Under the pieces are notes generated by a model. That model ran no database searches and was not told where the DNA came from. It saw nothing but the letters and a program-made list of their open reading frames with translations. A stretch of DNA of 64,000 bases from Herpetosiphon aurantiacus DSM 785 (GTDB taxonomy: Bacteria; Chloroflexota; Chloroflexia; Chloroflexales; Herpetosiphonaceae): the NCBI GenBank assembly GCA_000018565.1, contig CP000875.1, positions 1,503,199 to 1,567,198 of the forward strand, in the 5' to 3' direction. Both the position numbers and the translations under genes were made by a program. Within the stretch, counting starts at the first letter, position 1, and each line of letters opens with the position of its first letter. Below are positions 36,177-46,961 of the stretch, one piece after another.

Positions 36177-36566
36177 ATGAATCTCGAAACAGGTATGTTC
36201 TATAATACAATGATTAAGACACTCAAGGCGCTCTTACGCCAGCTTTTCCCCGACATTAATTGGAGCATTGCTGATTATGAAACGGTGATTAAACGCGGGT
36301 TTATTGATGCATTTGGTCATCCCAATGGGATTGTGATTACGGGTTCATTGCCCAATCGCCCAAAACAAACAGTCCACATCTCGAACTTAGTGCTCTATGA
36401 TGCAACCCCGATGTCCGAGGATATGGCTATAACGGCATCCATGGTGGGTGCGCGGATGCGGATTCTGCTTAAGGATGATTCGTCTCTGCCAATTCCTGCG
36501 CATACCCCTGCGCAGAAAGCGCACTTGGGAATTTCCCAGGTGCGCTTCGGCCTAAGCATTTGCTAA
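36177..36566 (+). CDS. Hypothetical protein, 3' end fused to phage-relic terminator
   Basis: A 129-residue reading frame starting at ATG 36177 after GAGG. The first 100 residues look like a normal soluble protein (no family recognised). The last 17 codons run through the hairpin terminator at 36519-36545 that belongs to the opposing phage remnant, so the true C-terminus was probably lost at the junction. Likely truncated. Confidence 0.5.
   Translation: MNLETGMFYNTMIKTLKALLRQLFPDINWSIADYETVIKRGFIDAFGHPNGIVITGSLPNRPKQTVHISNLVLYDATPMSEDMAITASMVGARMRILLKDDSSLPIPAHTPAQKAHLGISQVRFGLSIC
36519..36545. terminator. Hairpin terminator of phage remnant 1
   Basis: Arms GCGCACTTGGGAA and TTTCCCAGGTGCGC with one wobble pair. 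One of the five related hairpins after tail-gene 3' ends. Confidence 0.7.
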
Positions 36567-37125
36567 CCACATATCCAGCCGCTTGATCGGCGCTTCTGGC
36601 GTAACTGACACTTCGTCAGAGATCAAGTTAACCGAGGTTTCGGCCAGCGTGTAGCTGCGCTTATTAATTGCGCCGGAAAAATCGCCAATGGTAATCACAT
36701 CGCCTTGCGCACGTTGTACAATGTGCGCAAGGCCCGCACGCCTAGACTGGCGTGAAGGTAAAACACAGCGATCCGGTTTGGGCTGTGCTATTTCCCAGGG
36801 CAATCGTGGTGGCTCCGACTTGGCTGCTGTAATCGCACTCGGCAGCGAGGAACGTGGCCAGCCAATTGGTTGGGCCTTTGACTTTCCAATCGAACTGAAT
36901 CACCTGAAAGCCTGCACTTTGCAGATTCGCTGGAATAAAGAGCGACTGGCAGCCAATCTCCTTGGCATTCGAGAATTGTTCGTTCTTGCGCGGGGATAAA
37001 CTGATCGTGCCATCGTCGTGGCGCATCTCCCAGCGCTCGGGCGTGGACGAGGCAGTTTCCACGGGCAGCCGTCCAGTTTGGTGACCCACCACCAGCCATC
37101 GTACTGAAGGTCATCGAGCGCTGGA
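36555..37125 (-). pseudogene. Tail-gene remnant fused to terminase large subunit
   Basis: Two blocks of the tail protein at 52587-54266 survive: 37125 to about 36745 (RWEMRHDDGTISLSPRKNEQ, then GPTNWLATFLAAE) and about 36715 to 36555 (C-terminus, DVITIGDFSGAINKRSYTL to a TAA at 36555). The middle, about 250 codons, is deleted, with short inverted words (TTGCGCACG and TGTGCGCAA) near 36710-36730 at the joint. Frameshifts are present. The 5' end is joined to terminase sequence. Confidence 0.8.
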
Positions 37126-37285
37126 TTAAGAGCGTCCCGAGTACCTGTACTTGGGCAGGCCAGAGCGTAAAGGGCATTGTGCATCTCCCATCCCCCAACC
37201 CTTGGGCATCGTCGATTAATCCAAAGTGGTGGGTGAAGTAGGCAGGGTCGGCATGGCATTTCGCCAATTCAACAGCATTTGACAT
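37126..37285 (-). pseudogene. N-terminal fragment of terminase large subunit
   Basis: The first about 53 residues (DPAYFTHHFGLIDD, MPFTLWPAQVQVLGTLL) match the N-terminal region of large terminase subunits. It then joins tail-gene sequence at about 37125, so nearly all of the ATPase and nuclease is gone. It follows the small-subunit-like gene with a 70-bp overlap. Confidence 0.65.
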
Positions 37286-40305: not shown

Positions 40306-41553
40306 ATGCCGATTACCCTTAAGACAATAGAATTATTTGCTGGAGCTGGAGGCCTCGGGCTAGGGTTTCTTCTCGCAAATCATCCAGGTGTCAATTTTAG
40401 GCCTTTATGTGCAGTCGATTTTAACGTAGACGCATGTACTAGCTATAATATGAATATGCAATGGCTGCATCAGAATGCTCCTCATTTACAGACAACACAA
40501 GCTTCTAAGGCTTATCTGCGGAAAGTTGAATCCTTAAACGTTAATGCAGTGAAGAGGCTTTTCCAGTTACAACAAGGTGATCTCGATATTTTAATGGGTG
40601 GTCCTCCTTGTCAAGGATATTCATCTTCAAATCGCCAGGCATCAAAAGAAACACGCGATGAACTTAATAATATGGTGAAATCCTTTCTTGATCGAGTTCA
40701 AGATTTTTCACCAAAAATGTTTCTCTTAGAAAATGTCCAAGGAGTCACATGGACTGCCTCGACTGACGAAATGAGAATACCTAGTGAGCAATTATCCTTT
40801 ATAGATAATGAAGAGATTGCTGATGTTAAAGACTATTTAGTTCATAGAGCACGCGAGCTGGGTTATCACATATGGTATTCGGTGCTTGATGCAGCGGATT
40901 TTGGTGTCCCTCAACATAGAAAACGATTTTTTCTTTTTGGTATTCGTACAGACTTGACAACTGACCCAAATATTCGGCTTGAAAAATTTATCAATCCTTA
41001 TAGAACGAGCACACTTACAACAGTTGCCCAAGCTATTGAGGATCTTCCTGTTATTAATAATGGCGAGCATTGGAAAGGTAATAACTATAATCCGGTGGCG
41101 AATGGGTATATCACTATGATGCGTAGCTTTATGAATAATAATGTTTTATTTGACCACTTTACAACAAATCATCAAGAATATGTTCTTGAGCGTTTCAGAA
41201 ATATTCCTGAAGGCGAAAATTGGAAATCTATAAAAAATATTATGAATACGTATAAAAATGTAAACAAAACCCATAGTAATATTTATAGAAGATTACAACG
41301 GAATGCCCCATCGCATACTATTAGTCATTACCGCAAAGCAATGACTATCCATCCTGTACAGAATAGAGGATTATCATTTAGAGAAGCCTGTAGATTGCAG
41401 TCTTTTCCAGACTGGTATCGATTTAGTGGAACAAGAGAAAGTGCCCAACAGCAACTAGCGAATGCAGTGCCACCTTTGCTTTCGTCAAAGGTGGCACTGG
41501 CTATCGCAGATTATTGGTTATCTCTGCCACATAATGCTCTTATGAAAGATTAA
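40306..41553 (+). CDS. DNA (cytosine-5-)-methyltransferase
   Basis: A 415-residue C5 methyltransferase: motif I ELFAGAGGLGLGFL (about 8), motif IV GGPPCQGYSSSN with the catalytic Cys (about 99), motif VI ENVQGV (about 143), motif VIII QHRKRFFLFGIR (about 203), motif X LANAVPPLLS near the end. It is more AT-rich than the core genes. It ends 14 bp inside the 3' end of the opposing Z1 gene. Probably the modification half of a restriction-like system. Confidence 0.93.
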   Translation: MPITLKTIELFAGAGGLGLGFLLANHPGVNFRPLCAVDFNVDACTSYNMNMQWLHQNAPHLQTTQASKAYLRKVESLNVNAVKRLFQLQQGDLDILMGGPPCQGYSSSNRQASKETRDELNNMVKSFLDRVQDFSPKMFLLENVQGVTWTASTDEMRIPSEQLSFIDNEEIADVKDYLVHRARELGYHIWYSVLDAADFGVPQHRKRFFLFGIRTDLTTDPNIRLEKFINPYRTSTLTTVAQAIEDLPVINNGEHWKGNNYNPVANGYITMMRSFMNNNVLFDHFTTNHQEYVLERFRNIPEGENWKSIKNIMNTYKNVNKTHSNIYRRLQRNAPSHTISHYRKAMTIHPVQNRGLSFREACRLQSFPDWYRFSGTRESAQQQLANAVPPLLSSKVALAIADYWLSLPHNALMKD

Positions 41554-43615
41554 AGACAAAAGTATATTTGTCTTTTGTATCTGGAAATGTTATTGCAGGT
41601 ATCCAAAAAGGTTTTCCATTCCAGTTTTCGCCAGTAACTTTGAATATAAATAAAGTTGGATATTCTCGGCTTGCTTTGGCTTTATAGCCGGGTGGTAATA
41701 AAGCACCAAATTTGTCTTTACTACCAATATTTCGATTACGGCTAACAATTAAAAGACCTCTCGTAATGTTTCCTGTCTTCATTAATTCCAGTGCAGATAT
41801 AATTTTTTTGTCATTCCAAAGACTAAAAGTTCTAGGTACCGAATGGATATTATTTAATATATCTATCAGAATTTCTATATCAACCTCTTTTTCCTCGGTC
41901 TTGATACCGGTAGTTGGATAGTCTTCCAATATGGCATCAATATTTTTAGTAGTTTTATCTATATCTGACTTATTGTAATATGGATATCTTTGTAAGTAAT
42001 TCTTTCCAGAAACGTAATATCCTATACTAAACTTATTTAGAACATTGTTTCTTGTTGCTCTTACCGTGTTATTTATAATAATACTGCGATAATTTTCATT
42101 AGGATATCTTTTTATTAAATCACGTAATGCTTTTTCTGATTCATAAATAACAGTAAATCTTTTTTCAATTTCTTCAGTTATAAATAGTCTTGTAACATCC
42201 ATATGATTTTTTCTGTACCCATACATTCTTGCATGCTGAAGCATGGTATCCATGTTTGTTACTTTTGGTTGTCTCCCATAATATGTGACAATTAAATTTT
42301 TTATGGTGACCCCACGCGCTATTTTAGTTCCTCCAATGAAAATATTATATTTTCCTGAATATGTTGGTTGATAGGTCGTACTACTGTTAATTACACTTAT
42401 ATCTGTTTTTATAATAGACTCTCTTAATTCATTAATTATCGTTCCTAATGAAATACCATCCTCATATGTACTTATTATGTCAGTATATATTTTTTCTAGA
42501 TAATATATATCTTCACTTGTGATATTATTATCAACATAATCTATTAATGATTTTCTAAGTACTCCTATATATTTATTTATTATTTGACTAATTTTATCAT
42601 GATCTGCTTTTCTCGCACTAATATGACAAAGAAAAGAAAATCTAGTACTAGGTTCATCAACTATCTTGATAGTTGCTCCAATATAAAATGTTAGTAATGC
42701 ATCTCGCAGACTATCTGGAATACTATCACCTTCTTGTTCAATCATCATATGGATATCATGCTGATCGATTCTTCGTATAATTTTTGATTTACGTTCCTCT
42801 AATTCATTTTCATCATCATTTTCATAAATCATGTCAATTTCTTGTTTCAGCGCAAAAAACTGTTCGCTTCCAACATAATCAGCCCCTGGTTCCAATAAAA
42901 CAGTAAAACCAGGTCTTGATTCATGTCCAGAATCTTGAAGAAAGAGTGCTTGAGGAGTAGCTGTAACCTGTAATCTGACATGATTAGGAACTAAACGACG
43001 TATCTCTTCAATAGCACTGAACGTAGGCCCAGCCTCTATAAGAGGATTAACGCTTCTTCTTCGAGTATTAGTATCTAATCCACCCTCATCAGCTTCATCA
43101 TCAATAATTAATGCTATAGGAAGGCCCATCTTGAGCTCTTCTTGAATTGTTCTAAGGGTTTGTTCTAACTTGTAAAGAATAGCAGTATTTTTTGTTGTAA
43201 CTAATACTAAAACACCCTTAGGATCTTTAAGGGTTTGGGTCATCATTAGTATCTTTTGTTCCCAACTATCCTTCCCTTCCACTTCTATACTTTGTAAATC
43301 TTGTTTCAACCGCTCATCAATTGTCTGATTATAGAGTATAAGGTTATTAGAAGTAAGAATAATAAAGAGTCGATATCCATTATCTGCCGCTAATGCTATA
43401 GCTGTAGTGAAAGCAAATGTTTTACCACTTTGAATATAGCCTAGAAGCAATCCATGTCGGTTTTGACTTCCTTCTTCGGCAGAAGGTAATTCTTGAATTA
43501 ATTCTAGAATATTATTAATAAGCTTATCTGCACCATTCTCACCCATTGATTTTACTAAAACTGTGCGTAGTTGCGTAATATGTTTGCCATCGGTGATAAT
43601 ATCGTCAAGTTCCAT
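41540..43615 (-). CDS. Z1-domain P-loop ATPase, defence-associated
   Basis: A 691-residue protein. GYIQSGKTFAF (about 59-69) is a Walker A variant, IIDDEADEGG (about 170) a DEAD-like box, VRLQVTATPQALFLQ (about 220) a helicase motif III-like segment, and NIFIGGTKIARGVTI (about 425) with MLQHARMYGYR (about 460) the Z1 core (PF10593). Z1 proteins are helicase-like and accompany C5 methyltransferases in restriction-type gene groups that usually also have MORC/MutL-type ATPase, DUF4420/PD-(D/E)xK and AIPR genes. Those partners are absent here. Strongly AT-rich, so recently acquired. Confidence 0.85.
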   Translation of the reverse strand: MELDDIITDGKHITQLRTVLVKSMGENGADKLINNILELIQELPSAEEGSQNRHGLLLGYIQSGKTFAFTTAIALAADNGYRLFIILTSNNLILYNQTIDERLKQDLQSIEVEGKDSWEQKILMMTQTLKDPKGVLVLVTTKNTAILYKLEQTLRTIQEELKMGLPIALIIDDEADEGGLDTNTRRRSVNPLIEAGPTFSAIEEIRRLVPNHVRLQVTATPQALFLQDSGHESRPGFTVLLEPGADYVGSEQFFALKQEIDMIYENDDENELEERKSKIIRRIDQHDIHMMIEQEGDSIPDSLRDALLTFYIGATIKIVDEPSTRFSFLCHISARKADHDKISQIINKYIGVLRKSLIDYVDNNITSEDIYYLEKIYTDIISTYEDGISLGTIINELRESIIKTDISVINSSTTYQPTYSGKYNIFIGGTKIARGVTIKNLIVTYYGRQPKVTNMDTMLQHARMYGYRKNHMDVTRLFITEEIEKRFTVIYESEKALRDLIKRYPNENYRSIIINNTVRATRNNVLNKFSIGYYVSGKNYLQRYPYYNKSDIDKTTKNIDAILEDYPTTGIKTEEKEVDIEILIDILNNIHSVPRTFSLWNDKKIISALELMKTGNITRGLLIVSRNRNIGSKDKFGALLPPGYKAKASREYPTLFIFKVTGENWNGKPFWIPAITFPDTKDKYTFVFNLS

Positions 43616-43737
43616 TATTCTAGACTCCTATATAGAAAAATATTAATCTGCTAGAAAAAATCTGAAATAACCCTTCCTCTCATATTTTAAGCACACTTGG
43701 GTTATATGTTGTCGGTCAACAGTCCAAGAATAATTAA

Positions 43738-44703
43738 CTAAATCCGATCACCCTTCGCCAGATTACATTTCCGACAAAGCAGCTGCACATTGCCGACGGT
43801 GTTTGCTCCGCCCTTGCTGTGCGGAATGATATGATCAAACTCAAGATAAGAGGCATCGCCACACTGGGTACACTTGCCCTGATCACGTTGCCACACTGCC
43901 AGTTTTACATCTTGGGGAATATAGCGGCTTTCTTGTCCAGTTTGGGGTGCAATAAACTCTCGTTTGGCCATACGCACTAACACATCAAATACTGCTTCAG
44001 CCATGGTTGGATCTGCCACGCTATAGCGACCATTCCCACTTTTAACCGATAGTTCTAAGTAGATGCTGCCTGCCTCAGCGTTAATCCGCATGACCTTCTT
44101 CCAGTCGATGCTGCTTCCACCCGCTTGGGAAAGAAAATGCAGTTTCTTATTGGTAGCCACAAAACGCCCAGGTTGCAAGGTAGTGCCTTTGGCGGTGACT
44201 TTATGATAGCGGGCATCAGTTTCGAGATGGCAGATTTCGCCAGCATCGAGCCGAACGGTTGGTTGAATCGTTGGCAGATGACCTTGGCGCACATTACTAA
44301 TGGTTTGCAAGTATTTGAGGCGCTGGAGCAGCGGTTGGGCTTGATGATCGGGGATGCGAAAGGCCTGTTGGAGTTGCTGAATATGGGCGGCTTCTTCATT
44401 CGTAATTACGCCATCGGTCGATGCAAAAGCCAGTGTGCGTTCAAGGAAGTTCAGTGCATCACCACGAATATAGTTCAGCGCCTCATCCCAGCTCAAGCCT
44501 TCTTGCTGCGAGCCTTGAATAAGGATCGTCCATTCTTGTGGCGATAAAAGCCCATCATTACAAAATTGCAGAAACGCCTGGCGAAAGCGCTGGAGTTGTT
44601 GTTGGACAACGCCGTCGCAGGGGCCGCAGCGATTGGTTTGACGATTGAAGCGTAAAGCACCCATAAGACCAGTATCTTGGTGGCAGCGCGTGCAAACTGG
44701 CAT
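43738..44703 (-). CDS. Zinc ribbon / TerB-like / PH-like / HNH endonuclease
   Basis: A 321-residue multidomain protein. CTRCHQD and CGPC near the N-terminus form a zinc ribbon; about 45-120 is helical and TerB-like (DGVITNEEAAHIQQL); about 150-255 is beta-rich and PH/GRAM-like (LEtDARYHKV, GRFVATNKKLHFLS); about 270-321 is an HNH nuclease (VWQRDQGKCTQCG, LEFDHIIPHSKGG, LLCRKCNLAKG). The ATG at 44703 has AGGAG upstream. It may be a defence nuclease, possibly linked to the nearby methyltransferase, but is separated from it by the Z1 gene and a gap. Confidence 0.75.
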   Translation of the reverse strand: MPVCTRCHQDTGLMGALRFNRQTNRCGPCDGVVQQQLQRFRQAFLQFCNDGLLSPQEWTILIQGSQQEGLSWDEALNYIRGDALNFLERTLAFASTDGVITNEEAAHIQQLQQAFRIPDHQAQPLLQRLKYLQTISNVRQGHLPTIQPTVRLDAGEICHLETDARYHKVTAKGTTLQPGRFVATNKKLHFLSQAGGSSIDWKKVMRINAEAGSIYLELSVKSGNGRYSVADPTMAEAVFDVLVRMAKREFIAPQTGQESRYIPQDVKLAVWQRDQGKCTQCGDASYLEFDHIIPHSKGGANTVGNVQLLCRKCNLAKGDRI

Positions 44704-45112: not shown

Positions 45113-45796
45113 TTATAAATTGCTATGGTGTTTCTTGCGTCTCCGTAGATCAGCAGGGGTTGGTATAGGTTTTAAGTGAAGCCGTTCATGACAATCTCGA
45201 CAAAGCGTAATTCCATTCGAAACAACAAAACGTAGTTCTGGATATTTGGCAAATGCTTTAATATGATGAGCCTGTAAATTACCGCCGCGACGATCACCGC
45301 ATGATTGACATGTGTATTCATCGCGTGCATAAACAGCATTTCGCCAGTCACGATATTCGGGGCTACGGCGTGCATCGTTCCTATGTATCCCCCCCTTCCA
45401 ATTAGGGTTTCGTTCTCCGCGAGCCGCATTAACGCGTAAAACTTGGCTAATCTTTTGTCTTACCTCTTCGCTTCGAGGAATGCCACGAAGCGGGCTAATG
45501 CGTCCTATATGCGCCTCTCTCATACGTTGTTTTGCTTCTTCTGTATGGGTATGGCCTTTAAAAGTCGAAACCCTACCTTTATGACTTTTACGAACTTTGA
45601 CACGACTACATGCATGACAACGGGTTGATAAGCCATCACCACGAGTATGATCTTTATTAAACCACTCCCGTGGTTGCCATGATTTACATTTGCTGCACCA
45701 TTTCAACCCTTGACTAAGATTTAATTTATACTCATCAAGTGATATACCTATTCTTTTGGCTGCTATTTTGAGTGAACCTTCTAATGTCAGTGCCAT
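45113..45796 (-). CDS. NUMOD3 / HNH homing-type endonuclease
   Basis: A 227-residue protein: an N-terminal two-Cys-pair zinc finger (WCSKCKSWQPREWFNKD, CHAC), NUMOD3-like DNA-binding repeats (HTEEAKQRMREAHIGRIS, RSEEVRQKISQ, about 85-125) and a C-terminal HNH (CQSCG, LQAHHIKAFAKYP, LCRDCHERLH). This is the plan of phage-borne free-standing homing endonucleases. It follows that it may be selfish and not part of a host system. Confidence 0.88.
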   Translation of the reverse strand: MALTLEGSLKIAAKRIGISLDEYKLNLSQGLKWCSKCKSWQPREWFNKDHTRGDGLSTRCHACSRVKVRKSHKGRVSTFKGHTHTEEAKQRMREAHIGRISPLRGIPRSEEVRQKISQVLRVNAARGERNPNWKGGIHRNDARRSPEYRDWRNAVYARDEYTCQSCGDRRGGNLQAHHIKAFAKYPELRFVVSNGITLCRDCHERLHLKPIPTPADLRRRKKHHSNL

Positions 45797-46220: not shown

Positions 46221-46961
46221 CTAATAAAAATTATATCTTGGAAAGAAATAATAAAATAATTTAATCAAAGGAAATAATCCAAACATCATTATAAATGGTA
46301 GTACAAGAATAAATATCAAGCTTGAAGAACCTGTAAAAGGATTATCTATTATTGAAACCTTTTGAGATTCTATAATTAATTTACCTAAATCTGTTATTTC
46401 TTTATTATTCCATCTATTTTCAACAGCATTAATCTTTTCTCTTCCAGAAGTTATCATTTCATTAAGTAGAATATAAAAAGATAAAAAAGATATTCCTAAA
46501 GCAGAAAATGTAATTGTTGATGATATAGTTTTATCTCTCAGAGGAACTTTTGATTTGATTCTTTTAATTCTTTCTTCCAATTGTGATGTTGTTATAAATA
46601 CCCAATCCCTGTCATCACCTTCAATTTGGAATGATATAGAATGATTATTTGGTTCAGATAAGTATTTTGGATTTGAAAATGACATAAATATTCTATAATT
46701 ATATGTATAAGATTCATCTTTATCAGTTAAATTTAATCTAATTCTATTTATAAGAGATGAACCATCATTCTTAAATGAAAATATTGAATCTATATTTTCT
46801 ATTTCACTAATAACTCCATTACCAAATAATACTTCTATATAGATTTCCGGATCGTTTGATTTGATTTTTATTTGTTGTAAACAAATATCAAGTAATCTTC
46901 TTAATTCTTGTTCATTTATAAAAAAACCGTTATCATATGATTTATTCAGTTCTGATCTCAT
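46221..46961 (-). CDS. Hypothetical membrane protein, very AT-rich
   Basis: A 246-residue protein with a soluble N-terminal half and two hydrophobic helices (TITFSALGISFLSFYILLNE, about 150-170; LIFILVLPFIMMFGLFPLIK, about 212-232). No family recognised. Its base composition is far more AT-rich than the core genes, so it is a recent arrival. A membrane effector of a defence system or a phage gene is possible but unsupported. Confidence 0.65.
   Translation of the reverse strand: MRSELNKSYDNGFFINEQELRRLLDICLQQIKIKSNDPEIYIEVLFGNGVISEIENIDSIFSFKNDGSSLINRIRLNLTDKDESYTYNYRIFMSFSNPKYLSEPNNHSISFQIEGDDRDWVFITTSQLEERIKRIKSKVPLRDKTISSTITFSALGISFLSFYILLNEMITSGREKINAVENRWNNKEITDLGKLIIESQKVSIIDNPFTGSSSLIFILVLPFIMMFGLFPLIKLFYYFFPRYNFY

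What the first reader, a model, noticed from the sequence alone, without database searches (positions are those of the whole stretch)
40306..43615. Stripped-down C5-methyltransferase / Z1 ATPase pair
In known systems the Z1 protein travels with a C5 methyltransferase plus MORC-type ATPase, PD-(D/E)xK and AIPR genes. Here only the two are present, convergent with a 14-bp overlap, in AT-rich foreign DNA. A multidomain HNH protein (43738-44703) lies beyond Z1 on the same strand and could supply the nuclease in a novel arrangement.
Basis: inference. Interest (0 to 1): 0.55.

Follow-up and report, generated by a model that had tools for sequence, protein, structure and literature searches.

The report
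Nuclease-less methyltransferase/Z1 motor pair in prophage
A prophage in a gliding soil bacterium carries a DNA methyltransferase and the motor protein of a known three-part restriction enzyme, but the known DNA-cutting part was not found in the genome; the neighbouring nuclease that was suspected belongs to another protein family, and similar cutter-less pairs in other bacteria look like working units.

Summary
A C5 MTase (40306-41553, +) and a Z1 ATPase (41540-43615, -) are intact, convergent, overlap by 14 bp and lie in AT-rich DNA of an IMG/VR-called provirus. The Z1 protein is not MzaC: it aligns end to end with the motor (N/H) subunit of the CglI/NgoAVII ATP-dependent restriction enzymes, including the C-terminal domain (PDB 6f1s). 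Those enzymes need a PLD-B3 nuclease (R); two profile searches find none in this genome. The HNH neighbour is not its replacement: 8 of 8 full-length relatives lie without Z1, MTase or R in the flanks available. R lies within 3 kb in 0 of 19 loci of the window's Z1 clade, against 52 of 67 others. Two planctomycete MAGs share DNA homology over a Z1-MTase pair alone, both genes under purifying selection (dN/dS 0.16, 0.10), and a Rhizobium plasmid has the same convergent pair. Against this, the window's nearest Z1 relative has a PLD nuclease, an AlwI-like REase and a 172-aa partner nearby, so loss of the nuclease in the window is a serious rival. Best reading: an R-less variant of CglI-type restriction; mechanism untested.

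The parts
40306..41553 (+). C5-cytosine DNA methyltransferase (M component), 415 aa, motifs complete
   Evidence: ORF; PF00145 E 2.1e-51; TIGR00675 154 bits over cut-off 100.65; motifs
41540..43615 (-). DEAD-Z1 ATPase homologous to the N/H motor subunit of CglI/NgoAVII, 691 aa
   Evidence: PF10593 E 1.6e-41; full-length co-linear alignment with N.NgoAVII-type proteins; PDB 6f1s E 0.0015; model matches 6f1s (TMt 0.70) and HsdR
41540..41553 (.). 14-bp tail-to-tail overlap of the two genes
43616..43737 (.). 122-bp AT-rich gap upstream of Z1 (30% GC); no remnant of R or of the small partner found in window ORFs of at least 25 aa
43738..44703 (-). Zinc-ribbon/TerB-like/bPH/HNH protein: NOT part of the module (listed because the finding proposed it)
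   Evidence: HNH E 8.7e-15, bPH_3 below its cut-off; relatives TerD-linked and without Z1; the domain names zinc ribbon and TerB-like are my reading

Best explanation
The pair is an R-less variant of CglI/NgoAVII-type restriction-modification carried as cargo by a prophage. SHOWN by sequence: an intact C5 MTase; an intact DEAD-Z1 motor with the CglI-type C-terminal domain; no PLD-B3 nuclease found in the genome; similar convergent Z1/MTase pairs elsewhere, one of them under purifying selection. INFERRED: the MTase marks self DNA; on unmarked DNA a site-recognition function (in CglI the B3 domain of R, here most likely the MTase itself, as in Type I, Type III and BREX systems, recalled) loads the Z1 motor, whose ATP-driven translocation interferes with incoming DNA, either without cutting or by recruiting a nuclease encoded elsewhere.
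For: Z1 identity as H subunit. R absent: PF09565 in G000 none (control C. glutamicum found); 10-member R profile in G000 none, while control L054 gives 3e-148. R within 3 kb in 0 of 19 loci of the clade against 52 of 67 others, of 86 loci with at least 3 kb on both sides (clade; the 19 include the window itself). Pair as a unit: L084 and L088 share DNA homology only over Z1+MTase (7834-11084 of L084), none in the flanks; dN/dS 0.159 for Z1 (710 codons) and 0.095 for MTase (358 codons). Rhizobium plasmid L278 has the same convergent pair (31-bp gap), Z1 50.8% and MTase 51.3% identical to L084's. Convergent pairs without R within 3 kb and with gaps of at most 300 bp: L041, L045, L084, L088, L113 (window), L128, L131, L278. 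The prophage setting parallels CglI, which lies in prophage CGP3 (PMC4267653, Introduction read). Motor action: CglI is proposed to translocate on DNA (PMC5737866, passages seen).
Against: The nearest Z1 relative, L238 (support 0.84), has a small partner gene, an AlwI-like REase and, 4.66 kb from Z1, an R-like PLD nuclease. In the 16-member clade around the window all 15 others carry the small partner directly upstream; the window genome lacks it. Placement of L084/L088/L278 beside the window is unstable (clade support 0.93, only 0.48). The window MTase is not specifically close to the other pair MTases (L041 150 bits; L045 95, L088 91, L084 89). In CglI the ATPase works only with R and its cognate DNA (PMC4267653). 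L045 has an AlwI-like REase beside the MTase, L041's MTase sits in an MZA-like cluster, L278 has a Vsr next to Z1, so several of the pairs are not bare. L084 and L088 are MAGs.
Confidence: 0.42

Rival explanations
1. Loss: the prophage once had a CglI-like or small-partner/Z1 system with a nuclease; the nuclease and partner genes are gone, and the MTase survives as an orphan (protecting prophage DNA) with Z1 as a recent relic.
For: Nearest relative L238 carries PLD nuclease, AlwI-like REase and small partner; all 15 clade mates have the small partner; none of these is in G000.
Against: Both genes are full length with all motifs in 32-38% GC DNA, where stops would soon appear; no remnant found; an R-less pair elsewhere is under purifying selection.
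Confidence: 0.3
2. Nuclease in trans: the MTase/Z1 pair works with a nuclease encoded elsewhere in the chromosome or prophage that is not of the PLD-B3 or AlwI type.
For: Related Z1 loci have exchangeable nuclease-like neighbours: PLD-B3 (most), AlwI-like (L045, L238), a small protein of Hjc-like predicted fold (cyanobacteria, L155, L156, L238), Vsr (L278), HNH (L114).
Against: No candidate identified in this genome; the R genes of such systems normally lie next to their motor (52 of 67 other loci).
Confidence: 0.14
3. One reading: the HNH protein 43738-44703 is the nuclease of a three-gene MTase-Z1-HNH system.
For: Same strand, directly upstream of Z1 at the place where R sits in CglI loci; another HNH sits upstream of Z1 in L114.
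Against: 8 of 8 full-length relatives lack Z1, MTase and R; the family is TerD-linked; different GC3; 122-bp gap; the L114 HNH matches it only over 10 residues at E 0.37.
Confidence: 0.06
4. The two genes are independent cargo genes that happen to be neighbours.
For: Convergent, so not co-transcribed; MTase not specifically related to other pair MTases; Z1 genes without R or MTase occur in phages (L133, L146).
Against: Z1/C5-MTase proximity recurs widely (63 of 86 loci within 3 kb); chance adjacency here about 0.001 (my estimate).
Confidence: 0.08

Closest known systems
CglI / NgoAVII ATP-dependent restriction-modification (M, R = PLD-B3, N/H = DEAD-Z1)
   Same: C5 MTase; DEAD-Z1-CTD motor co-linear over its full length; prophage setting as for CglI in CGP3
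   Different: no R subunit found in locus or genome; MTase convergent and overlapping instead of M-R-H in a row; motor only 28% identical to N.NgoAVII (A1)
MZA system (MzaA-E: C5 MTase, MORC-type ATPase, Z1, PD-(D/E)XK, AIPR)
   Same: C5 MTase plus a Z1 protein
   Different: Z1 691 aa against about 900; 109 bits against MzaC cut-off 1500; no MzaB, MzaD or MzaE neighbours; MZA-like loci occur in other genomes of the genus (L279, L280)
Small protein-Z1 pairs of cyanobacteria (plasmids and other contigs), unnamed
   Same: nearest well-populated Z1 clade (support 0.93); no PLD R
   Different: they carry an about 155-aa protein with an Hjc-like predicted fold directly upstream and no MTase within 3 kb; the window has the MTase and lacks the small protein
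Convergent Z1/C5-MTase pairs of Planctomycetes MAGs and Rhizobium gallicum plasmid pRgalR602b
   Same: two genes tail to tail (overlap or 31-bp gap), no PLD R
   Different: Z1 about 26-31% and MTase about 22-26% identical to the window's; Rhizobium adds a Vsr gene

Membership tests
CglI/NgoAVII-type RM | C5 MTase gene | tested here: met
   PF00145 E 2.1e-51
CglI/NgoAVII-type RM | DEAD-Z1-C-terminal-domain ATPase | tested here: met
CglI/NgoAVII-type RM | R subunit with PLD nuclease and B3 domain | tested here: not met
   none in G000; positive controls found
CglI/NgoAVII-type RM | ATP-dependent site-specific cleavage by an R2H2 complex | not testable with these tools
   biochemistry needed
MZA | Z1 protein of MzaC type | tested here: not met
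   109 bits, cut-off 1500 (the genus' own MzaC-like protein reaches 519)
MZA | MzaB, MzaD and MzaE beside it | tested here: not met
   none among the flanking ORFs scanned; AIPR not searched genome-wide
   0 of 8 full-length relatives
Small protein-Z1 pair | about 155-aa partner next to Z1 | tested here: not met
   none in window or G000
Prophage cargo | lies inside a called provirus, near phage genes | tested here: met
   (L113, IMG/VR UViG); small terminase, endolysin, holin at 37.2-39.1 kb

The most novel reading that the evidence does not exclude
A nuclease-free M-H defence system: a stand-alone C5 methyltransferase supplies self/non-self recognition and a CglI-type DEAD-Z1 translocase is the effector, blocking foreign DNA by motor action rather than cleavage, a two-gene counterpart of BREX-like exclusion that has spread between phyla.
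Probability: 0.25. Interest if true: 0.72.

Novelty: new variant of a known kind. Interest (0 to 1): 0.4.

Why it matters
CglI-type enzymes were shown to need R for target recognition and for switching on the motor. If Z1 motors work with only an MTase, or with exchangeable small partners, then the Z1 ATPase is a general motor module, and the two-gene pair is a simple system in which to ask what the translocase alone does to incoming DNA.

Tried and rejected
HNH as nuclease partner: rejected. MZA membership: rejected. PLD R in trans: none. AlwI-like REase in trans: none in G000; 2 of 13 genomes or records searched have it, both at Z1 loci. Small partner in the window or genome: none. Vsr as partner: no hit in window ORFs of at least 60 aa; it is common in R-containing CglI-like loci and so looks accessory. 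L114 as an MTase-HNH-Z1 operon: its MTase is a distant 270-aa protein (E 6e-6 to the window MTase), so I did not build on it. Promoter scan uninformative (33 found, 32.9 expected). Relatives of the MTase in viral contigs: only itself and one fragmentary match. A PHROG search for the large terminase in three ORFs at 36.5-37.3 kb found nothing. My first clade definition was changed by adding two sequences; both results are reported.

Of 134 loci, 48 were left out of the count (4 without a Z1 ORF of at least 550 aa, the others with a flank under 3 kb); L088 is among them.

Full report
Observation. Both are AT-rich (GC3 0.29 and 0.20) beside ORFs of 0.43-0.70 elsewhere in the window. The window lies in a 6,785,430-base genome of three contigs with one Z1 gene; the size fits Herpetosiphon aurantiacus DSM 785 as I recall it, which I did not test. 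IMG/VR holds the locus as provirus UViG_2508501111_000003, 78.8 kb (L113); from its coordinates the provirus begins near window 36,177 and runs past the window's right end. Small terminase, endolysin and holin genes lie at 37.2-39.1 kb.

What the Z1 protein is. It aligns over its full length with the N/H subunit of NgoAVII and with Z1 proteins that sit behind a PLD nuclease gene (identities 25-33%). The only PDB sequence match at E up to 1 is 6f1s, annotated CglIIR protein, E 0.0015, residues 521-681. The AlphaFold model (mean pLDDT 83.2) matches HsdR of EcoR124I, other SF2 helicases and 6f1s, 'C-terminal domain of CglI restriction endonuclease H subunit' (E 2.1e-6, TMt 0.70, rmsd 3.6). No nuclease domain was matched by Pfam (the ResIII match is the helicase part). 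So the closest known system is CglI/NgoAVII rather than MZA. In CglI (PMC4267653; Introduction and part 1 of the Discussion read) the R protein (PLD nuclease plus B3 domain) recognises DNA, the ATPase is active only with R, and cleavage needs both; the CglI genes lie in prophage CGP3. PMC5737866 (passages) proposes DNA translocation. The 2018 paper on the DEAD-Z1 motor is known to me only through a reference-list entry; it is not held.

Missing parts. PF09565 finds no R protein in the genome (control C. glutamicum found), and a profile of ten R proteins finds none either, while finding the control L054 (3e-148) and G567 (7.5e-86). Weak PF09565 hits in other clade genomes lie mostly in much longer ORFs (one in a 375-aa ORF of L088's genome) and are not confirmed by the fuller profile where both were run. 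AlwI-type REase: none in G000. Small partner: none.

Survey. 134 loci (6 from plasmid records; 80 from genomes; 48 from viral contigs) were labelled with home-made profiles. Of 86 with at least 3 kb on both sides, R lies within 3 kb in 0 of 19 in the window's clade and in 52 of 67 others; an MTase lies within 3 kb in 5 of 19 and 58 of 67. The clade (20 members, support 0.93) held the window, L041, L045, L114, L084, L088 and 14 cyanobacterial loci. After adding L238 and L278 the window groups with L238 (0.84), these with the cyanobacteria (0.93), then L041/L045/L114 (0.80); L084/L088/L278 fall outside with weak support (0.48).

Neighbours in the clade. In all 14 cyanobacterial loci and in L238 a 150-172-aa protein (99 aa open in L040) lies directly upstream of Z1. 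Two members scanned match no Pfam family at E up to 0.1; the model (pLDDT 87.8) is nearest to archaeal Holliday junction resolvases Hjc, E 2.4e-3, none at E up to 0.001, so a PD-(D/E)XK-like fold is likely but not proven. Among invariant or nearly invariant residues (E6, K50 and others) I do not see the full catalytic acid set as I recall it. L045 and L238 have an AlwI/BpuJI-like REase. L238 also has an R-like PLD gene 4.66 kb from Z1. This is the strongest fact against a simple 'R-less clade' and keeps the loss model at 0.3.

Pairs as units. Z1 and MTase are convergent, without R within 3 kb, with gaps of at most 300 bp in L041, L045, L084, L088, L113 (window), L128, L131 and L278. L084 and L088, two planctomycete MAGs, share DNA homology (80-81%) over the two genes only, with dN/dS 0.159 and 0.095. 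A Rhizobium gallicum plasmid has the pair at 50.8% (Z1) and 51.3% (MTase) identity to L084, with a Vsr gene beside Z1. So a bare Z1/MTase unit appears to be maintained by selection and to move between genomes. Not all eight are bare: L041's MTase sits next to AIPR and a second, MzaC-sized Z1, L045's next to an AlwI-like REase.

The HNH gene. Full-length relatives were found in five Chloroflexota genomes (G281, G206, G302, G068, G050), one viral contig and two Deinococcus plasmids. None of the eight loci has Z1, MTase, R or the small partner at E below 1e-3; flanks were as fetched and are short on one side in L256 and L257. In D. radiophilus it lies among TerD genes. The 350 of 400 phylum genomes with a match are mostly HNH-domain matches. 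No full-length relative was found in the five other genomes of the genus.

Mechanism. Shown: intact MTase, intact motor of CglI type, no known nuclease partner, recurrence of such pairs. Inferred: the MTase protects self DNA and probably gives the specificity; the motor acts on unmodified DNA. Whether it blocks without cutting, borrows a nuclease or has lost one cannot be decided by sequence. Confidence 0.42 for a working R-less variant, 0.30 for loss, 0.14 for a nuclease in trans, 0.06 for the HNH, 0.08 for unrelated neighbours.

Novelty. Paper searches on NgoAVII/CglI, Z1 domain with restriction-modification, CglIIR/H.CglI/BceSIV, MZA with Z1 domain, DEAD-Z1, and Z1 with methyltransferase and MORC (listings only, apart from the papers named above) listed no account of R-less Z1/MTase pairs or of the small partner by title or abstract start; subscription papers and REBASE are not in reach, so this is weak evidence of novelty. 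I rate it a new variant of a known kind.

Noticed in passing
L027, L028, L033-L040, L042-L044, L046 upstream of Z1; L238:10356-10874; L155:9751-10218; L156:9744-10172: Unnamed 140-172-aa protein family beside Z1 ATPases (upstream in cyanobacteria and L238, downstream in two viral contigs), no Pfam match for the two members scanned, predicted Hjc-like fold: a likely new partner of Z1 motors.
   Followed up: partly
L277:6268-6714 (G567): A second copy of the small protein in G567, without a Z1 gene among the neighbouring ORFs.
   Followed up: partly
L045:11543-13697 and L238:5419-7534: AlwI/BpuJI-like restriction enzyme with a 168-187-aa ORF in front of it beside Z1 and a C5 MTase: a possible Z1-assisted Type IIS-like system.
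   Followed up: partly
L041:5429-17843: Cohnella cluster with an HD-CE/HATPase protein, a CglI-like Z1, a 563-aa C5 MTase, AIPR and a second MzaC-sized Z1: two kinds of Z1 in one locus.
   Followed up: no
window 46221-46961: Very AT-rich (23% GC) 246-aa ORF, apparently a membrane protein, in the same cargo region; no match in Pfam, PADLOC, PHROGs or NCBIfam.
   Followed up: no
window 36552-37285: Downstream of the small terminase only fragmentary ORFs without PHROG match; an intact large terminase was not seen there, so the provirus may be decayed.
   Followed up: partly
L098:7246-9634 (and L121): Broken second copies of R and Z1 next to an intact R-Z1 set in Robinsoniella: decay of CglI-type genes does occur.
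   Followed up: no
L279, L280 (other genomes of the genus): MZA-like five-gene loci (MTase, MzaB, MzaC, MzaD, MzaE-like) in the genus; NCBIfam scan done on L279 only, the Mza matches below their equivalog cut-offs.
   Followed up: yes
window 45113-45796: NUMOD3-HNH homing-type endonuclease in the same provirus.
   Followed up: no
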